This document shows, piece by piece, positions 1-64,000 of a DNA stretch of 64,000 nucleotides. The notes under the pieces were generated by a model. That model had not been told where the DNA came from. It worked only from the letters and a program-made list of their open reading frames with translations, and did no database searches. Positions within the stretch are counted from its first letter, which is position 1, and each line of letters begins with the position of its first letter. A program made the position numbers and the translations under genes. The stretch spans positions 8,687,501-8,751,500 of the forward strand of contig CM072339.1 in assembly GCA_036874045.1 (NCBI GenBank), read 5' to 3'. The stretch comes from Cymodocea nodosa (lineage: Eukaryota; Streptophyta; Magnoliopsida; Alismatales; Cymodoceaceae).

Positions 1-1
1 G

Positions 2-592
2 AATGAAAACATTATAATATATCTAGGACAGAAATCATTAATTAACCAAACACATGTCATACTTGATGGATATATCTATTTAGTCACGGAAATATCATTA
101 GCATATGGATCTGATTTATACATAGTGAGCATAGACAGTTATGATGATTATATAGAAATTTTACCTATACCGAGTGAAATAGCTAAACCACCATCTGCAG
201 AATTTAATGAAATTCAAATAGGAATGTGGTATAATGAAGAAGATGATCCTACTTTATGTCTGATAAGATGGTGGGATGAACTTATGAAATTTCAAATATA
301 GATTATGGAAGACATGAATGAATGGAAGTGGGAAGAGGAGTATATTGAAATAGATGTAGAAATAGAAACTGCTACATTACCCTGAAACCAAAAAGGATCC
401 CTTTCTACATTACATATCATTAATGGTAATACACTCGTATTTGGAATTTATAATATATTGCATGTTTACAAATTAAAAAGGAACAAGAACTGCATTAAAA
501 CAAAATTAATAGCAAGAAGAACTATGCCTAAAAAGTTTGCTTGGATTGATACATTTATTCCATTTGTTTCTACTTTTCAATCATGTTCTTAA
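2..592 (+). pseudogene. F-box-associated domain protein, 3' part, inside Gypsy-F copy 1
   Basis: This is the C-terminal half of the F-box gene that is seen more completely at 58809-59948; the reading frame enters at base 2 and stops at TAA 590-592. The repeated hydrophobic strands, the CLIRWWDE stretch and the motif MEDMNEWKWEEEY are typical of the beta-rich F-box-associated region that recruits substrates in plant SCF ubiquitin ligases. Two in-frame stops, TAG 299-301 and TGA 383-385, are absent from copy 2, which has two different stops upstream. The copies therefore decayed separately from an open ancestor. No function is expected from this copy. Confidence 0.8.
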
Positions 593-2349
593 GCTGTGAT
601 TTTGTGTGTTTAATGTTGTGTATTCTGCATTTATTTTTAGAAAGAAAAAAAAAAAGAATTTTGAAGTTTTCAAGTTCATTTTATAAAAAAAAAACAAACA
701 AAACAAAATATCAATCTAGTTTGTTGGTATTTGTTCTGGGAAACCAACTAGCTTGCTTGTGAGCCACCAAAGGCATAGGAGACTAGGTTCCACACAAGAC
801 ACTGATTTATTAATATTTGTTAAATGTTATTTTGTTTTATATTCTATGTTTATCTGGGAATGAAAAGTTTTTCAGAATGAAAAATTGGAATATGCAGAAA
901 GAGATACAAATGGAACAAGGTATGTAACCAATTACTTATCCTGAATTTTAAATCAAACAAAACTTTATTCATGCCTGCTACAATTACTGTACTTATTGTC
1001 AAATCTTTTACATTGAGGACAATGCAAAATGTAGGTATGGGGGGGAGGTAATTAAAGTAACAGCCATGTAAGTTTGTTAATTAAAGGAATTAAAATGGTA
1101 CCGCAAAGTTTTGAGGAAATTGAAAATTTTTATGAACTTGCTGTAACTATCCGATAATTGAGACTGTAAAATTTTTATAAACTGCTTGAATGTTATATTT
1201 AGAAGGCTATAGAAGATGCTATAGAATTTATTATTTATGTAAATCTAGATATAATATCTTATGATTATTCTAAATTTCATGAGTTTAACAGTGTCACGAT
1301 TTTAAAATGAAATCAGAATATTTAATGCTTAATCAGAAAATTATCTGAAGTCCTGAAGGAGCTGAGATGTGAATTCTAGATTAAATGAAACACATATGAT
1401 GAAAGATACATTTACTTTGACTGATTGAACTTGTAGAATGATTTATGTGTAGATCTTATTAAACTACAGATAAAGTATGAGCTTATTGTTATGGATTCAT
1501 ATTTTTAATAAATGATAGAAGCAGGATTATATGAGATTGGTGTTTTACTACATCTGTATTAATGAAATATGTGCATATACAGTATGTGATTAATGCTTTG
1601 TTTTGTGTTTGCATTTATTTTTAGAAAAAAAGAAAAAAAGAAAAAAGAAAGAAAAAAACTTTGAGAGTTTATTGACTTGTTTGATCACGAGCCTTTTGTA
1701 CTTTAGCATATAGGTATGTAAGGATTGTTGACCTAAAAAAGGACTTTGAAAATCTGGCAACCTAAGATCCTGATCAGATCTGGGATTGTTGATTGAAAGC
1801 TCGTTACATGGGTACATTAGAAAGTTCTTGTATGATTCAAGCTTGTCAAATTAACTTTTAAAGTACACAAAAAAAAAAAAAACATATACTGTTCTGAAAA
1901 GATACAAGTGTTTTGTGAAATACAGATATCTTATGAATCGAGTATATTTTCTGTTATCTAGAATTGCTGAAATATGAATCTGGAATTGACTTTTGAAGTT
2001 GTTTAATGGAAATACAATTCTTTATTCTACTTGTCTTAATCAGATTGAATTGGATTGTACTTTGATTTGTATGTTGTTGAAATTTCATCTAGAAAAACTT
2101 ATTGGAAAATTCAGGATAACAGATGATGAAAAGAAGAACAAACGATAATATAATTAACACCTATATGAAAATGATATACTTTGTATGTAATTTACATATA
2201 TTCTAAATATCTTTGCTGGTTGATTACTGAAACATACAGAATATATGTTTATGTTGAACAGAAGAAAAAAAATAAAAGGGGAAGAATTAATTCTAGCACT
2301 TTTTAAAAGACCAATTAATTAGATCTTAGTTTGCTAAGGGACTAGCAAA
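593..2349 (+). other. Non-coding tail of Gypsy-F copy 1, partly shared with copia elements
   Basis: No credible gene is present. The stretch holds several poly(A)/poly(AG) runs, a first purine tract at 1034-1048, and from about 1170 a long region that aligns by eye with the pol-to-accessory-ORF spacer of the copia elements (16040-16560 and 18164-18720). Matching landmarks include the 'gagtttattga...gccttttgtact' and 'aggtatgtaaggatt' stretches near 1664-1725. The open frame at 1590-1817 on the minus strand is low-complexity and is a shadow. Confidence 0.7.
1034..1048 (+). promoter_or_regulatory. Internal purine tract resembling a polypurine tract
   Basis: The sequence ggtatgggggggagg follows an 'acattgaggacaatgcaaaatgt' context like that before the plus-strand primer of Athila-type elements, and it is conserved at 60388-60402 in copy 2. 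It lies 1.3 kb upstream of the LTR, so it is not the tract that borders the LTR. It may be a remnant of an older 3' end or a second central-type tract. Confidence 0.45.
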
Positions 2350-2367
2350 ATTTAGGTATGGGGGAAG
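2350..2367 (+). promoter_or_regulatory. Polypurine tract of Gypsy-F copy 1
   Basis: A purine-rich run, atttaggtatgggggaag, lies directly against the LTR start TGTTTAG at 2368. This is the expected primer site for plus-strand DNA synthesis. The same run abuts the LTR of copy 2 at 61714/61715. Confidence 0.75.
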
Positions 2368-4271
2368 TGTTTAGAATGAAAAAGTGCATATTATTAACGG
2401 TTAAATGATGGTTAATTACATAATATTTAGCTTATCATATGAGAATTAAGCCATTATGTTATAATTGCACTATTATATGCTTTAATTGAAGAATCTGCTT
2501 AATTTTGGGGAATTAATGTTAATTTAGTACATTTATGAACTGTCGGTAAGTTGCAGGCTGTGAAATATTTAAATATCTGAATTTTCTGATATTTCGGACA
2601 GTTATGTTTAACAGACCGAATATGTATCGGATAGTTATGTTTAAATTGCCGAACAGTTATGTTTAGAGAGAATATTTTATTATTTCCAAATGTACACATG
2701 TCGAGATCTGGTAGATTTACTTAAGTTATAACTCGTTAAGTTAGCATAACTGTACGCGTTGAGTTGCTATGTTGACCACTAATGCAACGCGTTAGGTTAG
2801 CGTTATAAACTTAAGTTGTTAGTTTTGCACGTGTTTTATAGTTAAATCAACGAAGAAAGTCCGTTGAGTTATCTGTAACTCCATAGACTATATATTTTCT
2901 AATATGCCACTGTAGCGGTTGCAGAAACAGACAGTTGGAAGGAAAAACCACGTTTGCACGTATCAAGCAGGAATTCAATCGCATAGGGAGAAAGAAATCA
3001 TCGTCGTTGATCTGAAGGAAGGAAATCCAACCGATCATTCAAGCAGAAGCAGTTACTACTGAAGAAATATAAAAGAAAAGAAGAAAAAAAGAAGGTGTGT
3101 GTGATCGATGGACGGCAAGTGTATACAAAGGAGGAGCACCGAGCTTTCTGCAGACAATATCGGCGATTCTCCGAAGTATCACACCAACCATCGTTATCAC
3201 CACCATAATCACCAATCATCGGAGGTTTGTGAGGATACTTGCCTGATGTCGGGTCGATTCCGAGCCAAACACAATGCCTGACAACCACTGTGAGGAGTGA
3301 TCGCGTCGCGGGAAGGGAAGACATTTTCACCAAGCATCGACTCATATTTCAGGAGATCGTAAAGCTTTTAGCCTTGGCTTCGGGTTGATGCCTGTATGCT
3401 GAAGAGGAGATCATCTTGCAATTCTGGACTCGCGATTCTATAGGGAGAGGAGACAAAATTGTACGTGGTTTAATTTTCAGTGGTGTAATCACGTTGCAAG
3501 TAGTGTCGGAAGTATTTACTATCAAGTGAGATTACTTTACATTTCACCTTTCGCCCATTTCCATGTTCACATCAAAACAAAAATACCAAAAACAATTTAT
3601 CTTTGTTTGTATGTTGTATTTGAGTGTTGTATTGTTTGTGTTGTATCGTGATTAATGTTATCTGTATCAGTTTTATGATTGTTTTATGTTAGTTTTAATT
3701 TTACAGTTTACTGAAATTGGTTCGTACAAAAAACTTAAAGATTTTAATGGTTACTGTTTGAATCATCTGAATGTTAGTATTGCTTAATGATAAATCCAAT
3801 GTTAACTAGCATTAAAAAGCTTAATTGATGTTATTTACAATCTGTGGAATCGCCCAATGGTTGGCCAAATTCCTCTGTAAATAGTAGTATTATAAAGAAG
3901 AGATAGGTTCGTGGAGTTAACTTAAGTCCACGAGGATAGTCCATTGAGTTAGCCATAACTCAACGAACTTAGTCCGTTGAGTTAATTGTAACTCAACGGA
4001 GTGCTTATTGAATATAAATTTGAATTGTTCACAATCAAACATTTCTTAAATTCGTCAGCAATTCCCTATGGGATCAACCTGTACTTGCACACTGATACAA
4101 TAGACACTGTGCACTTGTAGTTAAAGTACAAATTGGAATTAATATCTAAATTGTATTAAAGGTTGTTTGTTTACTTCTAAAAGAAAGAATAGGCATAAAG
4201 ATAAATTAACTAAGTAAAAATAGAAGCAACAAATCCAAGTTTTTCTAGTGAAGTGCTAGGAAAGCCAAACA
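2368..4271 (+). repeat. 3' LTR of Gypsy-F copy 1 (about 1.9 kb)
   Basis: The LTR starts TGTTTAG and ends CCAAACA, giving short terminal inverted repeats (TGTTT/AAACA). It begins right after the purine tract and matches 61715-63579 along its length. It contains stem-loop motifs near 2567-2660 (TTCGGACAGTTA type) and three in a row at 3910-3999, an AACTCGTTAAGTTA block at 2731-2835 shared with the copia LTR, and an A/T-rich TATA candidate near 3066. The minus-strand ORFs in it are shadows. Confidence 0.85.
3910..3999. repeat. Three consecutive stem-loop motifs in the Gypsy-F LTR
   Basis: Stem 1 is cgtggagttaa/ttaagtccacg around 3910-3932, with one mismatch. Stem 2 is TTGAGTTA-gcca-TAACTCAA around 3944-3964. 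Stem 3 is CCGTTGAGTTA (3974-3984), loop attg, TAACTCAACGG (3989-3999), a perfect 11 bp stem. The same trio occurs in copy 2 near 63208-63305 and in weaker form near 24295-24390. Confidence 0.75.
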
Positions 4272-15731: not shown

Positions 15732-15736
15732 ACTTA
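15732..15736. repeat. Target-site duplication of A2, right copy (ACTTA)
   Basis: Identical to 6811-6815; the A1 RNase H frame resumes right after it. Confidence 0.92.
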
Positions 15737-34563: not shown

Positions 34564-37119
34564 GAGGAGTTAAAAATATCCTTACATACTATAGACTTTC
34601 TAGAAGATGAAGGAGATATGCTAGAAGATGTGATTCAAGAAGAATTAAATAGGCAATTATATTATGAAACTTTAGAAGTAAGTGAAAATATAGATGTAGA
34701 AGGAGATCAAGAAGAGTTTAATATCGAAGATGAAAAGATTAAATTAGGAGCTCTAGCTTCTAATAGTCAACACCTAGATTTAAAACCTTTACCTCCTAAA
34801 TTGACCTATGTATTTCTAGAAGAAAAATGAGCATGTCCAATCATTATTGCATCAGATTTAAAGGAGGATCAAATATCTAAATTAAAAGATGTAGTAAAAA
34901 CTTATAAAGAAGCAATAGGATGGACTATGGGTGATATAAAAGGGTTAAGTGCAACTTTATGCTATCACCATATATATTTAGAAGAGAATGCTAAACCAAT
35001 TAGAATTCCTAAGAGGAGATTAAATCCAAACCTTAAAGAAGTAGTCAGGAAGGAAATAGTGAAATGGTTAGATAATGACATAATTTATCTAATTTCTAAC
35101 AGCTCATGGGTTAGTCCAATTCATGTAGTTTCCAAGAAAATAGGATTAACAGTTATTAAGAATGAGAGTCAAGACTTGATACTTACTAGAATCCAATGAA
35201 GCTGGAGAGTGTGTATAGACTATAGAAAGTGGAATGTTGTGACTAGGAAAGATCATTTTTCCTTACCTTTTATAGATCAAATGCTAGAGAAATTAAAAGG
35301 GCAAGAATATTTTTGTTTCCTAGATAGGTATTCAGGATATAACTAAGTTCCAGTAGTATTAGAGGATCAAGAGAAAAAAACTTTCACTTGTCCTAATGGA
35401 ACTTATTCTTTTAAGAGGATGTCATTCGGATTATGCAATGCACTAGCCACCTTTCAAAGGTGTATGCAGGGCATATTCACTGGAAAGACAAAAGATTTTA
35501 GAAATATTTATGGATGATTTTACTGTATATGTAACTTCATATGAAATGTGTTTAAACAATTTATACCAAGTATTAAAGCACTGTGTGGAAAAGAATCTAG
35601 TTCTAAATTAGGAAAAATGTCACTTCATGGTTAAACAAGGAATAGTCTTAGGACATATTGTTTCAATGAAAGGGTTGGAAGTAGATAAAGCTAAGATAGA
35701 AGTAATTTCTAATCTACTAGAACCTAAATCCATAAAAGATATTAGATAATTTCTAGGACATGTAGGATTTTATAGGAGATTTATTGAAGATTTTAGCAAA
35801 ATAGCTAAACCTTTAACTAATCTATTAAAAGATGTTCCATTTAACTTTGATAAGAATTGCAAAGAAGCCTTTTTCAAACTTAAAACTAGCTTAATTTTAA
35901 CTCCTATAATACAAGCACCTAATTGGAGTCATCCATTTGAATTAATGTCTGATGCATCTGATTTTGTTGTAGGAGCAATGTTAGGACATAAGATAGAAAA
36001 ATCTTCTATAGTGATTCATTATGCAAGCAAAACTTTAAATGATGCTCAAGTTAATTATACAACTACTGAAAAAGAATTATTAGCTATTGTGTTTGCCTTA
36101 GAAAGGTTTAGAACATATTTGATAGGAGCTAAAGTGATAGTATACACGGATCATTCAGCTTTAAAACACCTAATAGCAAAGAAAAAGACTAAACCTAGGT
36201 TGATCCGGTGGATATTGTTACTACAAGAATTTGATTTAGAAATTAAAGATAAAAAAGGATGTGAGAATGTAGTAGCAAACTATTTATCAAGATTAAAAAT
36301 AGAAAAATCAAACATTGAAATTAAGGATAATTTTCTTGATGAACAATTAATGACTATAAATACAAGCCTTGGTATGCAGACATAGTTAACTACTTAGTTA
36401 CAGGTTTAACACCTAAAGATTGGAATAGACAGGATAAGAAATTGTTCTTTTCAAGAGTAAAATATTACCATTGGGAAGACCCATACTTATTTAAGAAATG
36501 TCCTGATCTAGTTTTAATGAGGTATGTTCCAAAAACTGAATATCAACGCATATTGTCATTCTACCATGACCAAGCATGTGGAGGACATTTTAGTTCAAGA
36601 AAAATTGCTGCCAAAATTTTGCAATATGGATTCTAATCGCCAACACTATTTAAAGATGCTCATAAATGCTGCTTAAGTTGTTTGAGATGTCAACAAATGG
36701 GAAGGATATCAAAGAGGAATATGATGTCTTTGAATCCTATTGTTGAGGTTGAAATCATTGATGTGTAGGGAATAGATTTCATGGGTCCATTTCCTATGTC
36801 TAATCAATTTAATTATATATTGTTGGGGGTGGATTATGTATCTAAATGGATAGAAGCTATTTCTACAAAAACTAATAACAACAAAGTGGTAATACATTTT
36901 ATAAGAACTAATATAATTGCTAAATTTGGAATACCTAAAGCTATTATTAGTGATAGAGGAACTCATTTCTGTAATAGAAGTTTTGAAGCCTTAATGAAGA
37001 AATTGGAGTAAATCACAAAATAGCAACATCATATCATTCCCAAGCAAGTGGACAAGTAGAAAGTGTAACCAAACAAATTAATTTAATCATAGAAAATGTA
37101 GTAAATCCTACTAGAAAAG
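34564..37119 (+). pseudogene. Gypsy B1 pol: RT, RNase H, integrase core
   Basis: The acidic linker (34564-34830) leads into RT: LKEVVRKEIVKWLDNDIIYLIS, SWVSPIHVV, CIDYRKWN, FLDRYSGYN, FTCPNGTYSFKRMSFGLCNA and the catalytic MDD in FMDDFTVY near 35505-35525. RNase H has [12 protein letters not shown] and [10 protein letters not shown] (35945-36385). Integrase has YHDQACGGHFSSRK with CLRCQQM, the core GIDFMGPF, ISDRGTHF and HSQASGQVE. Stops (34828, 35197, 35344, 35748, 36383, 36634, 36766, 37009) and frameshifts near 35485, 36380 and 37010 inactivate it. This gypsy domain order (RT, RNase H, integrase) differs from the copia order in the same window. Confidence 0.88.
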
Positions 37120-40169: not shown

Positions 40170-40181
40170 TGGTATCAGAGC
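40170..40181 (+). promoter_or_regulatory. Primer-binding site of A5 (initiator tRNA-Met)
   Basis: TGGTATCAGAGC is an exact match to the standard plant copia primer site and begins three bases after the LTR end. Confidence 0.95.
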
Positions 40182-40367
40182 ATTGTTAATAATCTTTGAT
40201 ATAAAATTGATACCAACTTATTTAATATCATTGCTTATTCTACCTTCCTTGTTTTCAAATAGAAATTAATATCTGAGCATACGTTTAACTCTATTGATTT
40301 AAGGCTCAAGTTGTTTTAAAGTTTTTAGACTGTTTAAAATCAAATAGGTTGAAAAATCTAAGGTAAA

Positions 40368-43436: not shown

Positions 43437-43765
43437 AAGCTTATTCGAAGACTGTAAGAGAAAAAGAGAAAATGAAATTCTGGCATGATAGGAAAATTAT
43501 TTCAAAAAGCTTTGAAATAGGACAAGAAGTATATCTTTACATGGCTAGAATCCATAACCATCCAGGAAAATTAAGATCTAGATGGGCAGGACCTTACGTA
43601 GTTCGAAATATTTATCCTTATGGAGCTATTGAGATTGAAAATCCTAAAAATTAGAATATCTTTAAAGTAAATGGACAAAGACCTAGACCTATTCTGAAAA
43701 TACCAAAAAGCTCCTTTGGAATTGTAGAAGAAGTCAGAGTAGAGGACTACTCGAGCTTTACTTAA
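43437..43765 (+). pseudogene. Gypsy B1 integrase C-terminal domain
   Basis: The frame holding KMKFWHDRKI, FEIGQEVYLYMARIHNHPGKLRSRW and AGPYVV..IYPYGAIEIENP is the typical C-terminal part of Athila/Tat integrases. A stop at 43652-43654 precedes the terminal residues SSFGIVEEVRVEDYSSFT, and the ORF ends at TAA 43763-43765. The upstream piece of integrase was lost at the copia junction. Confidence 0.85.
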
Positions 43766-44344
43766 TAAGAAATCAGTTTTTATTTTATTTTCATATAAAA
43801 AAAAATCGTAGTAATTTTAAAAAGTTATAAAATATAAAAAATAGTTGCAATTCAACCGGTTGGATCCATCGGTATGACCGGAACATAAAAAAATCTATAT
43901 TAATTTTTAGTAAAAAATAAAAAAAACTTTTGGTTTTACCGAAACATAGTATCGATTCAAACAGAAAAAAGTCGATCTGACCAAAACATAATATCAGTTA
44001 AACCGGTAAAAAAAAAAAAACTATTATCTTAACTTTTTTTTTTATTATATCTGTTTGTACGGGGAGTCTGTTGAGTTACGCTTAACTCAACGAACTTACT
44101 CCGTTGAGTCTTGAGTTAGTTAACGAGCTTATTTTGTTGAGTTAACTGTAACTCAACGGAGTATTGTAACTAATTCCACGGATGAGAGAATGAGAGTTTT
44201 GTTTGGGAAATGACCCGATTACCCACCTAAACTTAGGGCTTATTTAGACTAAAACTTAGGGTTTTGGGGGCATTATCCAACAGATCAGTTAGAACTTAGA
44301 ACAGTAGATATCAGAGTGATTCTATGTTGTTGTGTAATTCCACG
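43766..44344 (+). other. Gypsy B1 spacer between pol and accessory ORF
   Basis: No gene is seen. It contains a degenerate repeat around ACCGAAACATAGTATCG(G/A)TT (43855-44020), poly(A) stretches, and two perfect stem-loops, GTTGAGTTA-cgct-TAACTCAAC at 44070-44091 and GTTGAGTTA-actg-TAACTCAAC at 44136-44157. The same order is found in B2 at 56086-56425. Confidence 0.65.
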
Positions 44345-45725
44345 ATGAGGAAGATGACACCCGAGTTCTGGGAAGATGTGGTTGACACATCACAATTTCT
44401 AAACGAGTCAGAGGAATGGCACACGCGGTAGAAAATTCAGAACACGATAAGAGAAAAAGAGTTACAGAAGGTAGAATCAGAACTCTTCAACATGAGAAAA
44501 TTTTTAGTTGATTTGGGTATACAAATACCCCAAATAGTAGTAACAAAAATCAAAGTAGCAATAGAAATTGCTTTAAGCAAAGAAAGAAAAATCAGGTGGA
44601 ATAATGAAGTAGCCCTAGTGCTAATGCAGGCAATGCCAGATTATGGTTCAAAAAGTGCATTGCTGGTCGTGCAAGGGGTGCAATAAGGCGACAGCAACAA
44701 GTAGAGGAAGAACAAGAGGAGCTGACTGTTGAAATACCTATTCCTAAGGAACAACAGCCAGGACCTTCAATTCCACCATTCAGGCCGTTGGCACGAATAG
44801 CAATGTTGGGGCCTTCAACTGAAGAGGAATTAAGAGAATTCCAAGGACTAGTTCAAGTTGGGAAAAACTAAGGAGAACCAAAAGATGTACAAGAAGAAGA
44901 AAAATAGGCTGAAATTAGTCTGCAGCCTATACAAGAAGAAGAAATAGAAATTAGGGCAGAAGCTGATTTGCCCATGACTCTATCCTAATCTACCATAGAA
45001 TCAGAAAGAACAGTGACAGTGCAGATTGGTAGTCGGGAGGAAGAAGAAAGAATAGAAACTGAACAAGAAGCTGAACAAAGCCATATAAAAGAAAATATGA
45101 CTTTGCAGATTCGACTGAATTTAATGAAACAATTCAAGATAGAGTGGAGAATTCTACTGGCTCACCACCACAAACAAAAGCAGAAGCAAATGTTCAGGAA
45201 TCTACAGAACATTTTCAGCAAGTTCAAGTTTAGCTTATGGAAGAGTAGGAAATCAAGAACTGTTTGGCTATCAATCGTAGTGTGCCATTATTAAATAGAC
45301 TGAAGCATTTAAATGGTAAAGCACACATGATAGCTAACATTTTGATTAAAAATGTCTACCAACGACAGGGCTATGACATTGAACTGAGTCAATTTGTCAA
45401 GTGGGCCACTTATGCAGTTGTGAATAGAATTCAAGTTAATTGGTGTCAAGTTTTCTTATCCAAAATGAAGTCTGCAAAGAAGAAATTATTTTATGGAGAT
45501 TTGATACCTATATTGATGGTAGACTGTATTAATTTCACGAAATGGACATCCAAAAGGATAAGATCAAGAACCATTGTAGTGAAAAAATACAAAAATTATG
45601 TTGCAACTGCTGAAGTATCTGTATCTTCTGGAGGCATTATTGAAGCTGTAGAGAGGATAGAACAATTAGAGCAGCAATTAGAAAAACTCTAGAAGGAAGT
45701 AGATGAACTTAGGAATAGAGGCTAA
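44345..45725 (+). pseudogene. Gypsy B1 accessory ORF
   Basis: An ORF after pol, opening with ATG at 44345 (RKMTPEFWEDVVDTSQF), with an acidic Glu-rich middle and a C-terminal part (45264-45692) reading LNGKAHMIANILIKNVYQR, ATYAVVNRIQVNWCQVFLS, KLFYGD and a short coiled coil, EQLEQQLEKL. That C-terminal part aligns by eye with the copia accessory ORF (20990-21240): IANIL, QR.G, NRIQ.NW, KLF.GD fall in register. Stops near 44429, 44684 and others and at least two frame changes inactivate it. No membrane segment is visible. Confidence 0.72.
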
Positions 45726-46019
45726 TTGTATAGTTTGTCTACTTATACTTGTATATATTTGTATGAAAAATATCTGATTTGATTGTACTGTAATTGATTC
45801 ATATGAATGAATATATGTTTTTCAGATATATTTTTCATGCGTGTTTAGAATGATGAAATGGATGAACTATATTGAATGTTATATAATTTGTGGAACATTA
45901 TGCATGAATGTTTAAAAAGATTTACAGTTTGCTGAATGACAGGATTAAATAATAGATGCTTGAAAATATCTACATGTTGTAAGGTAAAATGTAAATTCTG
46001 CATAACATGAAATGAATTG
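45726..46019 (+). other. Gypsy B1 3' untranslated region
   Basis: No gene is seen. It matches 56480-56760 in B2 (landmarks 'gaatgaatatatgtttttcag', 'gctgaatgacaggat', 'taaggtaaaatgtaaattct'). It ends where a copia LTR begins at 46020; no gypsy polypurine tract or LTR is reached. Confidence 0.6.
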
Positions 46020-53822: not shown

Positions 53823-55386
53823 TTTAGCTGTAAATATATCTCTTGATTTATATACTGTGTAATCATCTTTTTGATTAATGACAAAAAAGGGGAGAGATGT
53901 TATAAATTCAAAAGAAGAAGATGATTGTGATTTTAATTGCATATATTATAAAGGTAGATGATATTTAAGTGGTTATTGTAATCTGACAAATGATAATGTA
54001 ATCTGAAAGATAATTATATGGTTATTAAAATCATATACTAAGTTAAATAACTAGTCATTTCATTGCATTAATTTCTCATTCAACTAAACGTTAAGTTAAC
54101 ATATTTTTTTATTAAAAAGCATGATATGTTTTAAAGTTATATTTTCTATATCATGAATAGTGCACGTTTAGACAACTCGTTAAGTTAGAGTTTTATTCAT
54201 ATATAGGTCACGTGAAAACTCGTTAAGTTAGAGGCTTAAAGGTTAAAATAGGTCACATGAGAACTCATTAAGTTAGAGGCTTAAAGGTTAAAATAGGTCA
54301 CGTGAGACTTGTTAAGTTAGTGAGTAAAAGAAGAGACGAACTCGTTAAGTTAGTGGTGTACACGTGGTGAAATTAAAGGTTACGAATGTTATAGTGTATC
54401 ATGTGAGTTGTACATGTTTAACTCGTTAAGTTAACATAACTACACATGTTGAGTTGCTATATTGAATACTAAGGCAACGCATTAGGTTATCGTTATAAAC
54501 TTAAGTTGTTATTTTTACACGTGGTAAAATTCTTATTATAAAAATATTTGTTTATTACTAGTTCATTGAGTTATCTGTAACACAACGGAGTTGGTTCGTT
54601 GAGTTAGCGTAACACCACAAACTTAGTTCATTGAGTTAGTTATAGTACTTGTCACGTGAGTTCGCACATGAGGAACTCGTTAAGTTAGAAACGTTAAGTT
54701 ATATATCTACTTGTTTTACTCATTTAGTTAATATTAAAGTAACAACTTGTTATTGCATTTCATGAAAAATTTTGGACGAGAAAGTTTATTTTGCAGGAAA
54801 TTTTTCAGAGATCTAGGATTGATGAATAAAGTAAATTCGAAAAGAAAATGTAGGTCAGAACGTGTGTATTTCGATGAAGGAAAAACAAAAGACGTGAAGA
54901 GTGGAAAACTAATAGTGATTAAACGTGGAGGATATGCATGAAGTGAATATACAGTATAAAAGGCATAGAATTCTCATTGATCAATTATCCCTATACACCA
55001 AATGAAATATCTTTTTAGGGATCAAAAATACCACTTCAGGGAAAAGTTCTCAAGTAGAAGAAAATTCAGTGAAGCAGAAAAAGGTAAGATTTATGTCACT
55101 GAAGATCTGAAGTATCAGGAGAAAGCAAATTCGGTGAAGTAGAGAAAGATAAGATATTCATCACTGAAGAATTGTTGAAGAAGAAAAAGAAGAAGATGAT
55201 GAAAGATCTTAAACAAGGAGAAACGTTTTAAATTCCACACATTAGTTTTCTCTATTTGTAGTTATGAAATTGTATAGATAAAACATGGTATCGATATACA
55301 ATTGCATCTACAATTTCTGAGGAGAATTGAATTGTACTTTGTAATTGAAACATTGAATAAAAATGATTTTATGAAAGTAGTGTCTT
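53823..55386 (+). mobile_element. Copia A7 3' end: 3' region fused to a 5'- and 3'-truncated LTR
   Basis: 53823-54032 matches A1 21610-21820 (3' region, with 'gacaaaaaaggggagag' near 53880). It then jumps into an LTR about 170 bp past its start (54033-55386), so purine tract and LTR start are deleted. TATA box 54955-54963; one 42 bp unit. The LTR stops near 'gtgtctt', where gypsy RT begins. CACGTG boxes and AACTCGTTAAGTTAG repeats are retained, one block in duplicate (54210-54310). Confidence 0.8.
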
Positions 55387-56011
55387 AAGTTCAACTTTAT
55401 GCTGTCACCACATATATTTAGAAGAGAATGCTAAACCTGTTAGAATTCCTGAGAGGAGATTAAATCAAAACCTTAAAGAAGTAGTCAGGAAGGAAATAGT
55501 CAAATGGTTAGATAATGATATAATTTATCCGATTTCTGATAGCTCGTGGGTTAGTCCAATCCATGTAGTTCCCAAGAAATTAGGATTAACAGTTATTAAG
55601 AATGAAAGTCAAGACTTGATACCTACTAGAATTCAATCAAGCTGAAGAGTATGTATAGACTATAGAAAGCTGAATGTTGTGACTAGGAAAGATCATTTCC
55701 CTTACCTTTTATAGATCAAATGCTGGAAAGATTAGCAGGGCAAGAATATTTTTGTTTCCTAGACGGGTATTCAGGGTATAATCAAATTTCAGTAGCATTA
55801 GAGGATCAAGAGAAAACAACTTTCACCTGTCCTAATGGAACTTATGCTTTTAAAAGAATGCCATTCGGATTATGCAATGCGCCAGCTACCTTTCAAAGGT
55901 GTGTGCAGGGCATATTTACTGGAATGACTTAAACCTATTCTGAAAACACCAAAAAGCTCCTTTGGAATTATAGAAGAAGTCAGAGTAGCCTACTCGAGCT
56001 TTACTTAGTAA
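55387..56011 (+). pseudogene. Gypsy B2 RT fragment fused to the end of integrase
   Basis: The RT start (YLEENAKPVRIPERRLNQNLK, SWVSPIHVVPKK, CIDYRKLN, FLDGYSGYNQISVALED, FKRMPFGLCNAPATFQR) is clearer than in B1 but lacks everything after GIFTGMT. At 55931 it jumps to the last residues of integrase (PILKTPKSSFGIIEEVRV, SSFT). One stop near 55645 and a frameshift near 55700 are visible. About 7 kb of B1-equivalent sequence, or its uninterrupted 2.5 kb or so, is missing. Confidence 0.82.
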
Positions 56012-57586
56012 GAAATCAGTTTTTATGTTTATATATATATATATATATATAAAACATTAAAAATATATATAAAACATAAAAATAGTTGCGGTTCGACCGA
56101 AGCATAGCATCGATATGACCGGTTAAAAAAATTGTATATTAATTTTCAGAAAAAATATTGGTTTTACCAAAACATAATATCGGTTCAACCGAAAGAAAAA
56201 TTAAAAAAAATAAAAAAATATTTAGGTCTGACCGAAGCATAGTATCAGTTAAGTCGGTAAAAAAACAGAAAAACTATTCTCTATAATATTTTTATTATTA
56301 TATTTGCTTGTACGGGGAGTCCATTGAGTTACGCTTAACTCAACGAGCTTACTCCATTGAGTCTTGAGTTAGTCAACGAGCTTATTCCGTTGAGTTAACT
56401 GTAACTCAACGGAGTTCTATAGCTAAGACCTAAAATAAGAAAAACTCTAGAAGGAAGTAGATGAAGTTAGGCATAGAGATTAAATTGTATTGTTCGTCTA
56501 CTTGTGTAAAATTGTATGAAATTGTATGATGTACTTGTAATGTAATTGATTCATATTAATGAATATAATTTTTCAGATGCAATTTTCATACGTATTTGGA
56601 TGTGAAATGAATGGAATTTATTGAATATTATGTAATTTGTGGAACTTTATGAATATGTAACAGATTTACAATTTGCTAAATGACAGGATAACTGCTTAAA
56701 AATTTCTGCATGTTATAAGGTAAAATGTAAATTCTACATAACGTAAAATGACCTGCAAGTTAAATCTTTATATAATGCTCAGATTTAAATGTATTTTAAT
56801 CAAAATGATGCATTAATGACATAGATTTAACTTTATTACAGTTAGCAGAATGAAAAACAAAGAAAAAAAAATAGAATAGAAAACTTACGAGAGTGAAACT
56901 TAGAAGTTGCCAAGTGTTAACTCAACGAAGTAAGTCCGTTGAGTTAACCGTAACTCCATGAGGTCAGTAATATAATATAAGGTCACTCCGTTGAGTTATC
57001 TGTAACTCAACGAAGTTAGTCCATGGAGTTAGCAACAATAACCGACTGTGTTCTATTGAGTAATCTCTAACTCAACGACGTTAGTTCGTGGATTAAGCAG
57101 AACGGTTATTCTTTCAACCACAAACGACACTTCGTCGGTTTAGCGGTTACCAAAATTTGAAATTAGTAGTGGTACACGTACCCATAAAAATAGGAACCAC
57201 GATGCACGTTACAAGCCACGTTCTTGCAAGGAGATTTATTCACTTTATGGATGTGCAGTATATATATGAAACAAAATGTTATTTACGAGTTACCAACACT
57301 TTTAAGAGAAAGGAGAAAGCGTTGGAGGAATTGGAAGGAGAAGCAGCTCATTCAACCTTCATCCGACAACAAATATTTATAGGATGGAAAGCTTCAGACT
57401 GGTATGTAATTAATCTTCTGTTATTTATTTATGAGCACATGGACTCGTTCTCTAAGCACTAAATGATTAGTAAGAACACCTACCTAGGAATTTTCATTAC
57501 AGAGGAGTACTGAAAAATTTTCTGAACTGAACTTTAACGAAATTCTTTGGGGTGTAGCTAACCTTTCTTTAAAAGAGAACGTAGAG
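56012..57586 (+). other. Gypsy B2 3' parts and unassigned sequence before gag
   Basis: 56012-56425 matches the B1 spacer: an (AT)n run near 56032-56052, the degenerate ACCGAAGCATAG repeat, and stem-loops near 56327-56350 and 56388-56413 (CCGTTGAGTTA-actg-TAACTCAACGG). A jump at about 56430 skips the accessory ORF. 56447-56760 matches the B1 3' region. From 56920 to 57090 there are more stem-loops (GTTGAGTTA-tctg-TAACTCAAC near 56992). 57100-57586 matches nothing else here; a 101-codon frame at 57157-57462 has no ATG near its start and no recognisable domain. No Gypsy-F LTR is visible where the 5' LTR of copy 2 should be. Confidence 0.55.
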
Positions 57587-58774
57587 ATGGCTGCTCCAGT
57601 AGAAAAACCATTAGGAAAGATTCTGTATCCTGAATTAATTGATGAACCTTCATGTATTCGATTGCCAAACTTTGAGGGAGATAGGTTTGAACTGAAATCT
57701 AATTATATTAGTCAATTGCCACATTTTCATGGATTAGAAAGAGAGGATGTCTATTATTTCCTTAGAGAATTTAACGAAGTTTGTCAAATGATGAGAATGC
57801 CGAACATGAGTATAGATGCTATTAAACTTAGATATATCCCTTTTGCTTTAAAAGATACAGCTAAGAGATGGTTATATACTCTATCGCCTGATTCAATTTC
57901 TACATGGACTGAATTTTGCTCTGTTTTTTTGGAAAAATACTATCCAACACATCAAACGATTAAAAAGAAGAAAGAAATATTAATGTGCAGCCAAAAACAG
58001 GGTGAATCATTCTGGAAATATTTTGAAAGATTTAAAGATTTACTGACTTAATGTCCACATCATGCAATGAGTAAAGCACAATTAATAGGCATAATTTATG
58101 AAGGCATAGATGTTTCAACGAAATCTTTATTAGAATCTACTTGTCAAAATGGATTTTTAAAATTATGTAGTGAAGAAGCATGGGCATATTTAGAAAATTT
58201 TGCAAAAAGAACTGCATAGTGGGAAAATTCGGCTGAAGCTATTGCAGATAAAAGATTATTGCCAAGAGGAATGCATGAAATAGATTCCAATACTATGCTT
58301 GAGGTGAAATTAAATGAATTAACAAAGAAAATAGAAGAGTTATCATTAAATCAGAAGCTAGCAGAAAAGAATACAAACATAAATGACTTAGATATTATTT
58401 ATGCTAGAAACCAAAGAGATAACTTGGGAAATTCTTATAATCCTAATTGGAGAAATCATCCGAATTTATCTTGGAGAAACAACAATTTCCAGGGAGGAGA
58501 AAATATAAATGAGAAGAACATAAGTTATGAAGTATTAATTGAACAAGGAGCTAGAATAGAGAAATTAGAAAAGATAATCCAACAAGTAAACAAACGTCTA
58601 GAATTTATATTTGGAAATGCTACAAATCAAAATCAGAATAGAAATATATCACTTAGACAGAAGGAACCAATGGAAGTTAGACCTACTAGAGGATTGCCAA
58701 TACAAGCTATACCTAATCCTGTCAATAGAACGGTTAATGAAATTGATACCTCTTCTAGGAGGGCAGCTAAATGA
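57587..58774 (+). pseudogene. Gypsy-F gag
   Basis: An Athila-like Gag of about 395 codons in one frame, with stops at TAA 58049-58051 and TAG 58217-58219. The Retrotrans_gag-type core is at residues 35-155 (FELKSNYISQLPHFHG, IKLRYIPFALKDTAKRWLYT, FLEKYYPTHQT, SFWKYFERFKDLL), followed by CPHHAMSKAQLI, the YNPNWRNHPNLSWRNNN motif near residue 284, and a coiled coil near residues 310-345. ATG 57587 was chosen because it starts the conserved AAPVEKPLG. No zinc knuckle is visible. It would form particles for an element with no enzymes of its own. Confidence 0.85.
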
Positions 58775-58808
58775 AGTAGCATATCTGAAGCAACTATCTA
58801 GTCGACAA

Positions 58809-59948
58809 ATGGAATTAATGCAATTACCGTTGGATGCACTAAGGGAAATACTAAGTAACTTGTCAACTAAAGATCTGTGCAGGCTGTGTTGTGTATCAAA
58901 GGAAATTAAAGACTGTATTGAAGAAAAATATTTTCAGGGACTACAAGCTGCAAAAATGACTAAGATTAGAGATGGATTCATATGGAGGTCATTTAATCGT
59001 AGTTCAAATACCCATGAATATCTGGCTATGGAAGAAACTAATGGAATTCCACCCAATGTATTAGAAGGAATGAGTCATATTATGGGGATAGATGAAGGAT
59101 TAATCATATACAAGACGAGACCAAGATATGCAAGTTTATCATTACTTGATATTTTGATAAGAAATCCTATAACAGGAGAAGAATGGAATATAGGAAGACC
59201 TAATAGATTTGAAGCACAAACTGTAAATTCCTAGTCAGCTTTAATATTTTCTGATAAAAATTCTGCAATTCCTGAAAAATTATATTATTGGAGACCTACA
59301 GGAAATTAGGGTGAAGATTTACAATTAAGTGTGTATAATTTTCTGAACAGATCTTGGAATGAAAACATTATAATATATCTAGGACAGAAATCATTAATTA
59401 ACCAAACACATGTCATACTTGATGGATATATCTATTTAGTCACGGAGATATCATTAGCATATGGATCTAATTTATACATAGTGAGCATAGACAGTTATGA
59501 TGATTATATAGAAATTTTATCTATACCGAGTGAAATAGCTAAACCACCATCTGTAGAATTTAATGAAATTCAAATAGGAATGTGGTATAATGAAGAAGAT
59601 GATCCTACTTTATGTCTGATAAGATGGTGGGATGAATTGATGAAATTTCAAATATGGATTATGGAAGACATGAATGAATGGAAGTGGGAAGAGGAGTATA
59701 TTGAAATAGATGTAGAAATAGAAACTGCTACATTACCCTGGAACCAAAAAGGATCCCTTTCTGCATTACATATCATTAATGGTAATACACTCGTATTTGG
59801 AATTTATAATATATTGCATGTTTACAAATTAAAAAGGAACAAGAACTGCATTAAAACAGAATTAATAGCAAGAAGAACTATGCCTAAAAAGTTTGCTAGG
59901 ACTGATACATTTATTCCATTTGTTTCTACTTTTCAATCATGTTCTTAA
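58809..59948 (+). pseudogene. Captured F-box protein gene inside Gypsy-F
   Basis: The frame begins MELMQLPLDALREIL with a canonical F-box (LPLDALREILSNL..KDLCRLCCVSKEIKDCI, residues 6-37), the part that binds SKP1 in SCF ubiquitin ligases. An F-box-associated region follows: RNPITGEEWNIGRP, YNFLNRSWNENI, ILDGYIYLVTE, LCLIRWWDE and MEDMNEWKWEEEY. Length is about 379 codons, usual for plant F-box proteins. Two TAG stops (59232-59234 and 59307-59309) break one otherwise continuous frame. It lies 34 bp after the gag stop, and its frame is open upstream to 58611, overlapping gag. No introns are evident, consistent with capture through RNA. It occupies the place of pol. Confidence 0.85.
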
Positions 59949-61696
59949 GCTGTGATTTTGTGTGTTTAACGTTATGTATTCTGCTTTATTTTTAGAAAGA
60001 AAAAAAAAAGAATTTTGAAGTTTTCATGTTCATTTTATAAAAAAAAAACAAACAAAACAAAATATCAATCCAGTTTGTTGGTATCTATTCTGGGAAACCA
60101 ACTAGCTTGCTTGTGAGCCACCAAAGGCATAGGAGCTTGGGTTCCACACAAGAAACTGATTTATTAATATCTGTTAAATGTTATTTTGTTTTATATTCTG
60201 TGTTTATCTGGGAATGAAAAGTTTTTCAGAATCAAAAATCGGAATATGCAGAAAGAGATACAAATGGAACAAGGTATGTAACCAATTACTTATCCTGAAT
60301 TTTAAATCAAACAAAACTTTATTCATACCTGCTACAATTACTGTACTTATTATCAAATCTTTTACATTGAGTACAATGCAAAATGTAGGTATGGGGGGGA
60401 GGTAATTAAAGTAACAACCATGTAAGTTTGTTAATTAAAGGAATTAAAATGGTACTGCAAAGTTTTGAAGAAATTGAAAATTTTTATGAACTTGCTGTAA
60501 CTATCCGATAATTGAGACTGTAAAATTTTTATAAACTGCTTGAATGTTATATTTAGAAGGCTATAGAAGATGCTATAGAATTTATTATTTATGTAAATCT
60601 AGATATAGTATCTTATGATTTTTCTTAATTTCATGAGTTTAACAGTTTCACGATTTTAAAATGAAATCAGAATATTTAATGCTTAATCAAAAAATTATCT
60701 CAAGTCCTGAAGGAGCTGAGATGTGAATTCTAGATTAAATGAAACACATATGATGAAAGATACATTTACTTTGACTGATTGAACTTGTAGAATGATTTAT
60801 GTATAGATCTTATTAAACTACAGATAAAGTATGAGCTTATTGTTATGGATTCATATTTTTAGTAAATGATAAAAGCAGGATTATATGAGATTGGTGTTTT
60901 ACTACATTTGTATTAATGAAATACGTGCATATACAGTATGTGATTAATGCTTTGTTTTGTGTGTGCATTTATTTTTAGAAAAAAAAAAAAAAAAAAAACT
61001 TTGAGAGTTTATTGACTTGTTTGATCACGAGCCTTTTGTACTTGAGTAGATAGGTATGTAAGGATTGTTGACCTGAAAAAGGACTCTGAAAATCTGGCAA
61101 CCTAAGATCCTGATCAGATCTGGGATTATTGACTAAAAGCTCGTTACATGGGTACATTAGAAAGCTCTTGTATGATTCAAGCTTATCAAATTAACTTTTA
61201 AAGTAAACAAAAAAAAGAAAAAAAAAAAAACATATACTGTTTTGAAAAGATACAAGTGTTTTGTGAAATACAGATATCTTATGAATCGAGTATATTTTCT
61301 GTTATCTAGAATTGTTGAAAGATGAATCTGGAATTGACTTTTGAAGTTGTTTAATGGAAATACAATTCTTTATTCTACTTGTCTTAATCAAATTGAATTG
61401 GATTGTACTTTGATTCGTATGTTGTTGAAATTTCTTCTAGAAAACTTATTGGAAAATTTAGGATTACAGATGATGAAAAGAAGAACAAACGATAATATAA
61501 TTAACACCTATATGAAGATGATATACTTTGTATGTAATTTACATATATTCTAAATATCTTTGCAGGTTGATTACTGAAACATACAGAATATATGTTTATG
61601 CTGAACAGAAGAAAAAAAACAAAAGGGGAAGAATTAATTCTAGCACTTTTTGAAAGACCAATTAATTAGATCTTAGTTTGCTAAGGGACTAGCAAA
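59949..61696 (+). other. Non-coding tail of Gypsy-F copy 2
   Basis: No gene is seen. It matches 593-2349 base for base with scattered differences, including the internal purine tract (60388-60402) and the copia-like spacer (about 60530-61690). It differs by A-run lengths near 60979-61000 and 61207-61231. It retains the uninterrupted 'gtacttgagtagataggtatg' site. Confidence 0.75.
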
Positions 61697-61714
61697 ATTT
61701 AGGTATGGGGGAAG
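61697..61714 (+). promoter_or_regulatory. Polypurine tract of Gypsy-F copy 2
   Basis: The run atttaggtatgggggaag abuts the LTR start TGTTTAG at 61715, as at 2350-2367 in copy 1. Confidence 0.78.
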
Positions 61715-63579
61715 TGTTTAGAATGAAAAAGTGCATATTATTAACGGTTAAATGATGGTTAATTGCATAATATTTAGCTTATCATACGAGAATTAAGCCA
61801 TTATGTTATAATTGCACTATTATATGCTTTAATTGAAGAATCTGCTTAATTTTGGGGAATTAATGTTAATTTAGTACATTTATGAACTATCGGTAAGTTG
61901 CAGGCTGTGAAATTCTTAAGTATCTGAATTTTCTGATATTTCGACAATTATGTTTAACATACCGAACAAATTCGAACAGTTATGTTTAACAGACCGAATA
62001 TGCATCGGATAGTTAGACCTGTAACTCTCCGAAATGTTATTTTATGTTTAAACTGCTGCTGACACGTGTCAAGATCTGGTAGATTTACTTAAGTTATAAC
62101 TCGTTAAGTTAGTATAATTGTACGCGTTGAGTTACATGAATATACACTAAGGTAACGCGTTAGGTTAGCGGCTTATTTCTTTATTGCATGTATTTTATAG
62201 TTATTTTCCAAAATGCCACTATAGCGGTTGCAGGAACAGATAGTTGGAAGGAAAAACCATGTTTGTACGTATCACGCAGGAATTCAATTGCGCATGGAGA
62301 GGGAAGCATCGCCGTTGATCTGAAGGAAGGAAATCCAACTGATCATTCAAGCAGAAGCAGTTACTACTGAAGAAATATAAAAGAAAAGAAAAAAAAAAAA
62401 AAAAAGTGTGATCGATGGACGGCCAGTGTATACAGAGGAGGAGCACTGAGCTTTCTGCAAATAGTATCGGCGATTCTTCGAAGTATCACACCAGCCATCG
62501 TTATCACCACCATAATCACCAATCATTAGAGGTCTGTGAGGATACTTGCCTGATGTCGGGTCGATTTCGAGCCAAACACAGTGCCTGACAACCACTGTGA
62601 GGAGTGATCGCGTCGCGAGAAGGGAAGACATTTTCACCAAGTGCCGACTCATATTTCAGGAGATCGTAAAGCTTTTAGCCTTGGCTTCGGGTTGATGCCT
62701 GTATGCTGAAGAGGAGATCATCTTGCAATTCTGGACTCGCGATTCTATAGGGAGAGGAGACAGAATTGTAAGTGGTTTAATTTTCAGTGGTGTAATCACG
62801 TTGCAAGTAGTGTCGGAAGTATTTACTATCAAGTGAGATTAGTTTACATTTCACCTTTCACCCATTTCCATGTTCACATCAAAACAAAAATACCAAAAAC
62901 AATTTATTTTTGTTTGTATGTTGTATTTGAGTGTTGTATTGTTTGTGTTGTATCGTGATTAATGTTGTCTGTATCAATTTTATGATTGTTTTATGTTAGT
63001 TTTAATTTTACAATTTAATGAAATTGGTTCATAGAAAAAACTTAAAGATTTTAATGGTTACTGTTTGAATCATCTGAATGTTAGTATTGCTTAATGATAA
63101 ATCCAATGTTAACTAGCATTAAAAAGCTTAATTGATGTTATTTACAATCTGTGGAATCGCCCAATGGTTGGTCGAATTCCTCTGTAAATTACAGTATTAT
63201 AAAGAAGAGACAGGCTCGTGGAGTTAACTTAAGTCCACAAGGATAGTCTGTTGAGTTAGCCATAACTCAACGAACTTAGTCCATTGAGTTAACTGTCACT
63301 CAACGGGGTGCTTATTGAATATAAATTTGAATTGTTCACAATCAAACATTTCTTAAATTCGTCAGCAATTCCCTGTGGGATCGACCTGTACTTGCACACT
63401 AATACAATAGACACTGTGCACTTGCAGTTAAAGTACAAGTTGGAATTAATATCTAAATTGTATTAAAGGTTGTTTGTTTACTTCTAAAAGAAAGAATAGG
63501 CATAAAGATAAATTAACTAAGTAAAAATAGAAGTAACAAATCCAAGTTTTTCTAGTGTAGTGCTGGGAAAACCCAAACA
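61715..63579 (+). repeat. 3' LTR of Gypsy-F copy 2 (1865 bp)
   Basis: From TGTTTAG to CCAAACA, matching 2368-4271 with small indels: an extra CGAACA/GGATAGTTA motif block near 61970-62035, and deletion of the 'actccatagac' stretch near 62190. Stem-loop trio near 63208-63305. The target repeat after it is probably CTCGG (63580-63584). Confidence 0.87.
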
Positions 63580-64000
63580 CTCGGTTATCTACCCCTTATA
63601 ATACTTGGACAATTACCGAAAAAGAAAATGAAACTCTCAATGCTAAAGGCTTAAATATTTTATTTTGTGCATTGAGTTATGAACAGTTCAGTAAAGTGTC
63701 GGCATATAAATCTACTTATAAGATGTGGCATGCATTAGAAGTTGCACATGAAGGTACTTCTCAAGTTAAAGAGACTAAGATTAACATGTTAATTCATTAG
63801 TATGAACTCTTTTAGATGCATGAAGACGAAAGTATTTCTGAGATATTTTCCAAATTCCTTGATATCATAAACTCTTTAAAATGCTTAGGAAAGAATTTTG
63901 AACAGAAGGATTTGGTGAGGAAAATTCTCAGATCCCTAAATTCCAAATGGTCTCAGAAAGTGGCATCAATTGAGGAATCACGAGATTTAAATATTTATAC
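63580..64000 (+). pseudogene. Copia gag fragment (element A8), host of Gypsy-F copy 2
   Basis: From a point equivalent to 40527 in A5 the frame reads YNTWTITEKENETLNAKG, NILFCALSYEQFSKVSAYKS, KETKINMLIH, then NSLKCLGKNFEQKDLVRKIL and continues past the window edge. Two TAG stops (near 63798 and 63813) break it. Gypsy-F inserted in its capsid region; the 5' part should lie left of that element. Confidence 0.85.

What the first reader, a model, noticed from the sequence alone, without database searches (positions are those of the whole stretch)
57587..59948. LTR retrotransposon with an F-box gene in place of pol
Gag is followed at once by a nearly full-length F-box/F-box-associated gene, then an element tail, purine tract and LTR. 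Pol is absent. An element that carries a ubiquitin-ligase adaptor could in principle tag a host silencing factor or its own Gag. A passive gene capture by a non-autonomous element is the null hypothesis. I know of no described family with this layout, but I cannot search.
Basis: partly seen in the sequence, partly recalled or inferred. Interest (0 to 1): 0.88.

Follow-up and report, generated by a model that had tools for sequence, protein, structure and literature searches.

The report
Retrotransposon with displaced gag and F-box
This is one worn copy of a very abundant plant retrotransposon in which the coat-protein gene sits after the enzyme genes instead of before them, joined by an intron to a protein-degradation adaptor (F-box) gene, an arrangement I could not find described.

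Summary
Gag next to F-box is real and belongs to the element, but the F-box does not replace pol. The window copy is 5'-truncated: RT remnant (55385-55930), integrase end, gag and F-box (two internal stops each), purine tract, 3' LTR (61715-63579). Longer copies in the same genome read LTR - PBS - [zinc knuckle/PR-RT-RH-IN] - [ORFX] - gag capsid - intron - F-box - PPT - LTR; 7 of 7 copies with both ends in hand have perfect 5-bp target duplications. The capsid half of gag thus lies 3' of integrase: gag is split and the order permuted. Pattern counts give 1,455 gag/F-box junctions with an intron and 13 lacking exactly that intron; intronless copies are not one clade, so spliced RNA was reverse-transcribed repeatedly. 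A diverged sister subfamily has the same layout. Between subfamilies gag is constrained (omega about 0.26); the F-box changes faster (about 0.74, not distinguishable from neutral). Best reading: an Athila-like family, once able to move with its own pol, whose env position now holds gag capsid plus a captured F-box gene; what the F-box does is inference. Eight library searches listed no such layout.

The parts
55385..55930 (+). reverse-transcriptase remnant of the element's own pol (5' part of the copy is lost here; next to it lies sequence of another repeat family)
   Evidence: tblastn with family RT, 91-92% aa identity over 55385-55905; repeat matches on either side
55931..56008 (+). C-terminal remnant of integrase; RT to integrase deleted in this copy
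   Evidence: read by eye and compared with the integrase ends translated
56009..56433 (+). spacer 1; in 12 of 20 fetched copies ORFX (about 2.3 kb) lies at its 3' end, absent here
56434..57586 (+). spacer 2 upstream of gag; clusters of CCGTTGAGTTA-type repeats and a TATA-like stretch from 57256, 331 bases before the gag ATG (candidate internal promoter)
   Evidence: TATA-like stretch (up to 2 edits) in 21 of 21 copies, at 329-332 bases in 19 and at 305 and 267 in two; motif clusters
57587..58774 (+). gag, capsid half (Retrotrans_gag); two internal stops in this copy
58799..58800 (+). splice junction: exactly the 153-161 bp (136 in L024) intron GTATGT...TTACAG of sister copies is missing here
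   Evidence: genome counts
58809..59948 (+). F-box gene, 379 codons plus stop; two internal stops in this copy
59949..61696 (+). 3' non-coding tail of the element
   Evidence: shared between copies
61697..61714 (+). polypurine-type tract before the 3' LTR
61715..63579 (+). 3' LTR, TG...CA, 1865 bp
1..4271 (+). second copy of the same family, cut by the window edge: F-box C-terminal part (1-592), tail, 3' LTR (2368-4271)
34564..37115 (+). PR-RT-RH-IN of a sister-subfamily copy (RT, RH, IN 84-86% aa; partial PR 69%), followed by nested repeats
43677..46012 (+). probable continuation of that sister copy: integrase end, spacers, ORFX remnants

Best explanation
The locus is a 5'-truncated copy of an abundant Ty3/gypsy-type LTR retrotransposon family with Athila-like proteins and a permuted gene order. 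[quoted passage not shown] the capsid half of gag sits 3' of integrase, in the place where env-class elements carry env, followed by a short intron and an F-box gene, then the purine tract and LTR. SHOWN (the confidence below is for this part): the whole arrangement moves as one unit; copies lacking exactly the intron arose more than once, best explained by reverse transcription of spliced RNA; the layout predates the split of two subfamilies. INFERRED (my odds about 0.3): Pol is translated directly from genomic RNA, whereas capsid Gag and F-box come from a separate 3' transcript, probably from the internal TATA-like promoter 5' of gag, which would give Gag in excess without a gag-pol frameshift; the F-box protein works as an SCF adaptor helping the element (degrading a host restriction or silencing protein, or tuning Gag).
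For: Gag then F-box in 38 of 40 scored places and in 20 of 20 fetched copies, which I picked from places listed with both genes. Complete zinc knuckle-PR-RT-RH-IN upstream of gag in L009, L017, L020, L028; RT-IN in L011; an integrase piece in L013, L021, L022, L025, L026; of the other 10, 8 begin in ORFX (further upstream not fetched) and 2 (L012, L027) have no pol. tblastn at E 1e-4 finds no second capsid upstream, and in L036 only about 120 bp separate PBS and knuckle frame. Pfam: RT PF00078, RNase H PF17917, integrase PF00665 above cut-off; protease PF13650 and zinc knuckle below it. Unfetched copies: of 47 exact RT-pattern rows (contigs 1-7), 12 have an exact gag start within 10 kb on the same strand, all 12 downstream; 9 a gag/F-box junction, all 9 downstream; 18 of 47 have either, the rest none listed (repeating 139 with all 100 junction rows). 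Perfect 5-bp TSD in 7 of 7 copies with both ends in hand. Split: canonical protein P0002 20-434 aligns to the 3' gag, 365-666 to the 5' frame. Intron: 1,455 junctions with, 13 without, controls 0; intronless copies not one clade (AU p 5e-12; rooted on the sister subfamily 6 changes, at least 4 forced). Sister subfamily: gag in 4 of 4, F-box in 2 of 4 fetched pieces. Gag omega about 0.26, p 2.6e-4.
Against: F-box omega about 0.74, p 0.21: no significant constraint (one fixed change scored as a stop was left out). Its fixed differences per site (52 of 1,128, about 4.6%) are not lower than in the non-coding tail (25 of 647). Both sister F-box frames are broken (L041: one 1-base deletion and one stop; L043: two stops), and only 3 of 21 main copies have a stop-free F-box and 3 of 21 a stop-free gag. 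Two of four sister pieces break off inside gag; two of 40 places have only remnants of the F-box. No transcript data: promoter, subgenomic RNA and translation of Gag and F-box are unproven. No fold for the F-box C-terminal part (pLDDT 31) and only weak FBA hits. Recombination between copies could spread the intronless state and lower the number of splicing events. RT hits (2,609) outnumber gag starts (2,030) and junctions (1,468), so related families with other layouts may exist.
Confidence: 0.85

Rival explanations
1. Passive passenger: the permuted element picked up a host F-box gene once in an ancestor and has copied it ever since with no function for the element.
For: F-box omega about 0.74 is not significantly below 1 and its N/S ratio exceeds that of gag (Fisher p 0.020); divergence is similar to the non-coding tail; both sister frames are broken.
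Against: Retained over the split of two subfamilies; the only indel shared by both sister copies is 3 nt in frame; kept next to gag at about 1,470 junctions. Within the young copies N/S ratios look neutral for gag as well as F-box, so that test had no power. Fast change is also what an arms-race gene would show.
Confidence: 0.4
2. Non-autonomous gag-only element with an F-box in place of pol.
For: True of this copy and of L012 and L027, which have LTRs, PBS and target duplications but no pol between PBS and gag.
Against: Copies with complete pol and perfect target duplications exist, and exact-match rows show RT upstream of gag in unfetched copies too; the pol-less copies look like deletion derivatives.
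Confidence: 0.05
3. Composite of two elements: a pol element that lost its capsid and, downstream, a second element's gag-F-box unit, fused once and then amplified as one unit. (A rival about origin only; it can hold together with the main reading.)
For: The 3' gag has no recognisable zinc knuckle while the 5' frame has a weak one; both match an overlapping part (365-434) of canonical P0002, which fits two sources or a duplication. Spacer 2 carries the same repeat motif as the LTR.
Against: Spacer 2 resembles the LTR only through the short motif. With P0004 and P0006 the matches of the two halves overlap little or not at all.
Confidence: 0.35
4. Assembly error or chance neighbourhood of a gag and a host F-box gene.
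For: None found.
Against: Same order at many sites with target duplications.
Confidence: 0.01

Closest known systems
Athila lineage and env-class plant Ty3/gypsy elements (passages of PMC7264820 and PMC6317226)
   Same: PR-RT-RH-IN order; PBS TGGCGCCGTTGCCGGGG next to the 5' LTR, which I recall as tRNA-Asp-type and typical of Athila/Tat; long 3' region with extra ORFs after integrase; gag and protease similar to canonical CA-knuckle-PR proteins.
   Different: PMC6317226 classes 8,453 elements as Ty3/gypsy with the order GAG-PROT-RT-RH-INT; here capsid gag is 3' of integrase. The same passage says that GAG could not be identified in 159 of its Ty3/gypsy elements, so a permuted layout could hide there. 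An F-box follows gag here.
Ogre (Tat) elements with a spliced intron (passages of PMC6317226)
   Same: An intron inside the element that is removed from only part of the RNA.
   Different: In Ogre the intron lies between gag-protease and RT-RH-IN and splicing joins the polyprotein; here it lies between gag and the F-box.
Orchid Ty3/gypsy elements with a captured m6A demethylase (PMC9289625; passages and section 12)
   Same: A host enzyme-type gene fixed in a multi-copy plant Ty3/gypsy family.
   Different: Different gene. Section 12 names only some of the 15 extra domains found over 121 angiosperm genomes, F-box not among them, and 'F-box' occurs nowhere in the main text. Supplements not read.
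Polerovirus P0 F-box silencing suppressor (passages of PMC6356646)
   Same: A plant-infecting genetic element using the SCF machinery through an F-box-like protein; shows that such a function is possible.
   Different: An RNA virus protein; no sequence relation was tested and no target is known here.
Bdelloid rotifer LTR elements with captured ORF3s (passages of PMC5408684)
   Same: Extra ORFs of cellular type in the env position, variation there mostly neutral.
   Different: ORF1 and ORF2 are gag and pol in the usual order.

Membership tests
LTR retrotransposon | two LTRs, PBS, purine tract, short target duplication | tested here: met
   7 of 7 copies with both ends fetched have perfect 5-bp TSD; PBS recognised in 6 of these 7 (L009, L012, L013, L020, L027, L028), not in L017
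Ty3/gypsy superfamily | PR-RT-RH-IN order within pol | tested here: met
Ty3/gypsy superfamily | gag upstream of pol | tested here: not met
   capsid gag downstream in 4 of 4 copies with complete pol and in 12 of 12 unfetched RT-gag pairs; only a knuckle-bearing gag remnant is upstream
Athila lineage | placement by RT phylogeny | not tested
   no reference set of named plant RTs was at hand; Athila-like is judged from recalled motifs and the PBS
Non-autonomous elements without pol (LARD, TR-GAG kind; names recalled) | family lacks pol | tested here: not met
   pol present in longer copies
F-box protein | N-terminal F-box domain | tested here: met
   PF00646 E 7e-8, 32.5 bits against cut-off 20.5; in 4 of 7 rows of A2, some of which are fragments without the N terminus
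F-box/F-box-associated (FBA) protein | FBA or kelch propeller C-terminal | tested here: inconclusive
   FBA_1 E 0.012 in 1 of 7 and FBA_3 best E 0.59 in 3 of 7 rows; model pLDDT 31
SCF adaptor | binds SKP1 | not testable with these tools
   needs an experiment
Ogre-type spliced element | intron whose removal joins gag-protease to RT-IN | tested here: not met
   intron lies between gag and F-box

The most novel reading that the evidence does not exclude
A retroelement family has turned its genome round: Pol is expressed first from genomic RNA, and capsid Gag together with an SCF adaptor is expressed from a spliced 3' transcript of its own, the way viruses express structural and accessory proteins. 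That frees it from gag-pol frameshifting, lets the F-box act as an accessory factor against host restriction, and helped it to well over a thousand copies.
Probability: 0.3. Interest if true: 0.92.

Novelty: new variant of a known kind. Interest (0 to 1): 0.8.

Why it matters
Gag before pol is treated as a fixed feature of LTR elements; annotation and classification rely on it. A family of well over a thousand copies with the capsid after integrase shows that the order can be broken and still spread, and asks how the Gag to Pol ratio is then set. An F-box gene carried by a transposon in an intron-bearing unit makes it testable whether transposons, like polerovirus P0, use the host's protein-degradation machinery. 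The natural mixture of spliced and unspliced genomic copies is a record of which RNAs were packaged and reverse-transcribed.

Tried and rejected
One-off insertion of a host gene: rejected. Pol-less family: rejected. A second intron upstream of gag (GTATGT near 57403): of 10 copies aligned only L017 lacks part of it, 67 bp that do not end in AG, so I take it for a microhomology deletion, not an intron. ORFX loss and leader-to-spacer joins as splicing: boundaries are not GT-AG, left as deletions. Spacer 2 as a relic LTR: only the repeat motif matches. Selection test within the young copies: no power, gag itself looks neutral. Structure of the F-box protein: pLDDT 31, not searched further. Relatives of the F-box in a 5.8-billion-protein set, which seems to hold few plants: none at E <= 0.001 for one sequence or for an alignment; PDB none convincing. 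The host parent gene was not found: near-identical element copies fill the result list. Species not identified.

Paper searches; none of the listings showed an LTR element with an F-box gene or with gag after pol; one search returned no paper at all; subscription journals and supplements were not covered.

Biases to keep in mind: the window query favours intronless copies, so 8 of 20 fetched were intronless whereas genome-wide it is 13 of 1,468; the 20 were picked from places listed with both gag and F-box. Pattern counts allow 3 mismatches and miss more diverged copies. One search was given only 46 of the 100 listed junction rows, 4 of them picked by eye, and left out 4 of the 100 gag rows; one search repeats it with all 100 junction and all 100 gag rows and the 47 RT rows of contigs 1-7 (of 100 listed), with the same 12 and 9 pairs. 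For minus-strand hits the lower coordinate was used.

Full report
What was checked. The window lies in an unnamed 374.6-Mb genome in 28 contigs, at G000:C7:8687501-8751500. In the window, a gag frame (57587-58774) and an F-box frame (58809-59948) lie head to tail, each with two internal stops. Stop-free frames of other copies score Retrotrans_gag PF03732 (E 2e-20) and F-box PF00646 (E 7e-8). A purine tract (61697-61714) and a 1,865-bp 3' LTR (61715-63579) follow.

It is a family. The DNA search scored 40 places (its cap) and listed 71 pieces; by my count 38 of the 40 places have gag and all or nearly all of the F-box, two have gag with only 135 and 37 bases of F-box. I fetched 20 of them, all from places listed with both genes, as 10-kb stretches; 20 of 20 carry gag then F-box. 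A protein search scored 108 near-full-length F-box places at 89-100% identity, the cap out of 7,001 candidates. Pattern counts with up to 3 mismatches gave 2,030 gag starts, 1,455 unspliced and 13 spliced gag/F-box junctions and 2,609 RT sites, with zero hits for the reversed control pattern in each. At 15-17 kb for long copies (lengths) and about 10 kb for short ones, roughly 1,470 copies would be some 4-6.5% of the genome (my estimate).

Pol is there, but upstream of gag. Fetching further 5' showed pol frames before gag. Pfam finds RT, RNase H and integrase above cut-off, and protease and a zinc knuckle below cut-off. In L009, L017, L020 and L028 the order is knuckle, PR, RT, RH, IN, then (in 12 of the 20 copies) ORFX, with a weak match to the 'putative plant transposon protein' family (E 0.0072), then capsid gag, then F-box. 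L011 shows RT to IN before gag, and L013, L021, L022, L025 and L026 an integrase piece; of the other ten, eight begin in ORFX so that pol would lie outside the stretch fetched, and L012 and L027 have none. No second capsid match was found upstream (tblastn E 1e-4), and the knuckle frame starts about 120 bp after the PBS in L036. The arrangement is flanked by LTRs with perfect 5-bp target duplications in 7 of 7 copies for which both ends were in hand: L009 GCAAC, L012 ACAAG, L013 TCATG, L017 TTCTC, L020 AATAT, L027 GGACT, L028 GGATG. LTR pairs, some of them partial, differ by K 0.040-0.050 in 6 copies, mostly by transitions; with a rate of 1.3e-8 (recalled) this would be about 1.5-1.9 million years, an upper value if methylation speeds C-to-T change. 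On copies I did not fetch: of 47 exact RT rows, 12 pair with an exact gag start on the same strand within 10 kb, all with gag downstream, and 9 with a gag/F-box junction, all downstream; 29 of the 47 had neither partner in the lists of exact matches and say nothing.

Split gag. Twelve proteins matched the capsid frame in the large protein set. Canonical P0002 (666 aa) aligns by residues 20-434 to the 3' gag (38% identity) and by 365-666 to the 5' frame (36%); P0004 and P0006 likewise match the 3' gag with their N-terminal and the 5' frame with their C-terminal part; P0003 from Tasmannia lanceolata is a canonical capsid-protease protein. The element therefore holds the two parts of one canonical-type Gag in permuted order. 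Whether this arose by permutation or by fusion of two elements I cannot tell.

The intron. Twelve of the 20 fetched copies have 136-161 bp between gag and F-box, beginning GTATGT in 10 of 12 and ending AG in 8 of 12; the exceptions differ by single bases at the sites. The window and eight fetched copies lack exactly this stretch. The intronless copies do not form one clade (6 changes, at least 3 forced, AU p 5e-12); rooted on the sister subfamily, whose two F-box-bearing copies have a stretch aligning to the intron, 6 changes are needed and at least 4 forced. Retrotransposition of spliced RNA, more than once, is the simplest explanation; copy-to-copy recombination could lower the number of events. 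Removing the intron opens the F-box frame back into the end of gag, while the unspliced frame hits a stop within 8-12 codons, so a recoded Gag-F-box fusion would be possible only from spliced RNA. That is speculation.

A sister subfamily. The window's other copy (34564-37115, probably continued at 43677-46012) is 84-86% identical in RT, RNase H and integrase. Its relatives led to four downstream stretches: gag in 4 of 4, F-box in 2 of 4 (78-79% identity); the other two break off inside gag. Neither sister F-box frame is intact: L041 has a 1-base deletion and a stop, L043 two stops; of the 21 main copies 3 have a stop-free F-box and 3 a stop-free gag. Fixed differences between the two F-box-bearing sister copies and the 21 main copies give gag 13 non-synonymous and 17 synonymous (neutral expectation 22.4 and 7.6; omega about 0.26, p 2.6e-4) and F-box 36 and 15 (39.7 and 12.3; omega about 0.74, p 0.21; one change scored as a stop left out); the two genes differ (Fisher p 0.020). 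The first 45 F-box codons hold 2 of 37 non-synonymous changes in a recount that includes the stop. Per site, the intron has 12 of 153, the tail 25 of 647 and spacer 2 15 of 677 fixed differences. So gag is clearly constrained; the F-box has been carried at full length but changes quickly, which fits weak constraint, a passenger, or an arms race.

How it most likely works. Shown: one mobile unit, precise repeated intron loss, layout older than the two subfamilies. Inferred: Pol from genomic RNA; Gag and F-box from a 3' transcript. A TATA-like stretch lies 329-332 bases before the gag ATG in 19 of 21 copies and at 305 and 267 in the other two, and spacer 2 is as conserved as gag. The F-box protein most likely binds SKP1 like other F-box proteins; polerovirus P0 shows that an F-box-like protein can serve a plant virus by removing AGO proteins (passages of PMC6356646). 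No target is known here.

Comparison. PMC6317226 (passages) reports 8,453 elements classed Ty3/gypsy with the order GAG-PROT-RT-RH-INT, 159 of them without an identifiable GAG, and the Ogre intron; PMC9289625 (passages and section 12) names extra domains over 121 angiosperm genomes without naming F-box; passages of PMC7264820, PMC11963269 and PMC5408684 describe extra ORFs and show no F-box or gag-after-pol layout, though PMC11963269 mentions clusters without a GAG domain. Eight library searches listed no element with an F-box gene or with gag after pol. I call it a new variant of a known kind.

Noticed in passing
window 2861-63306, clusters in the LTR (63248-63306), spacers (56321-56412, 56918-57078), other repeats (13050-24384, 37498-44159, 53203-54606) and the gag/F-box intron of sister copies: An 11-base motif CCGTTGAGTTA in both orientations, often as inverted pairs, occurs 46 times (up to 1 mismatch) against 0.61 expected (0 of 100 shuffles reach it), in LTRs and spacers of several element families; the intron resembles the same LTR part. 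The AACGG core recalls MYB/MSA-type sites (recalled); a shared enhancer is one reading.
   Followed up: partly
L009:1-1847, L016:3-947, L017:807-1961, L020 and others; window 20580-21049 and 47865-48665: ORFX between integrase and gag: acidic N-terminal part, weak match to PF20167; diverged relatives (about 28-37% aa) sit in other repeat families of the window.
   Followed up: partly
L012, L027: Pol-less derivatives with LTRs and perfect target duplications: the leader after the PBS is joined close to spacer 1 or 2; the L027 boundary is not GT-AG.
   Followed up: partly
L018:9152-9161: An LTR end, 8 bases of leader, then a new LTR start: a tandem LTR arrangement suggesting recombination between copies.
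   Followed up: no
window 18163-18700, 50201-50989, 60747-61566: The 3' tail of the element is about 71-72% alike to stretches in other repeat families of the window, so several families share the tail.
   Followed up: no
window 63580-64000: Just after the 3' LTR lies a stretch that repeats at 91% elsewhere in the window (11386-11816, 40518-40946); by eye it reads like a gag of another (copia-like) family, not tested.
   Followed up: no
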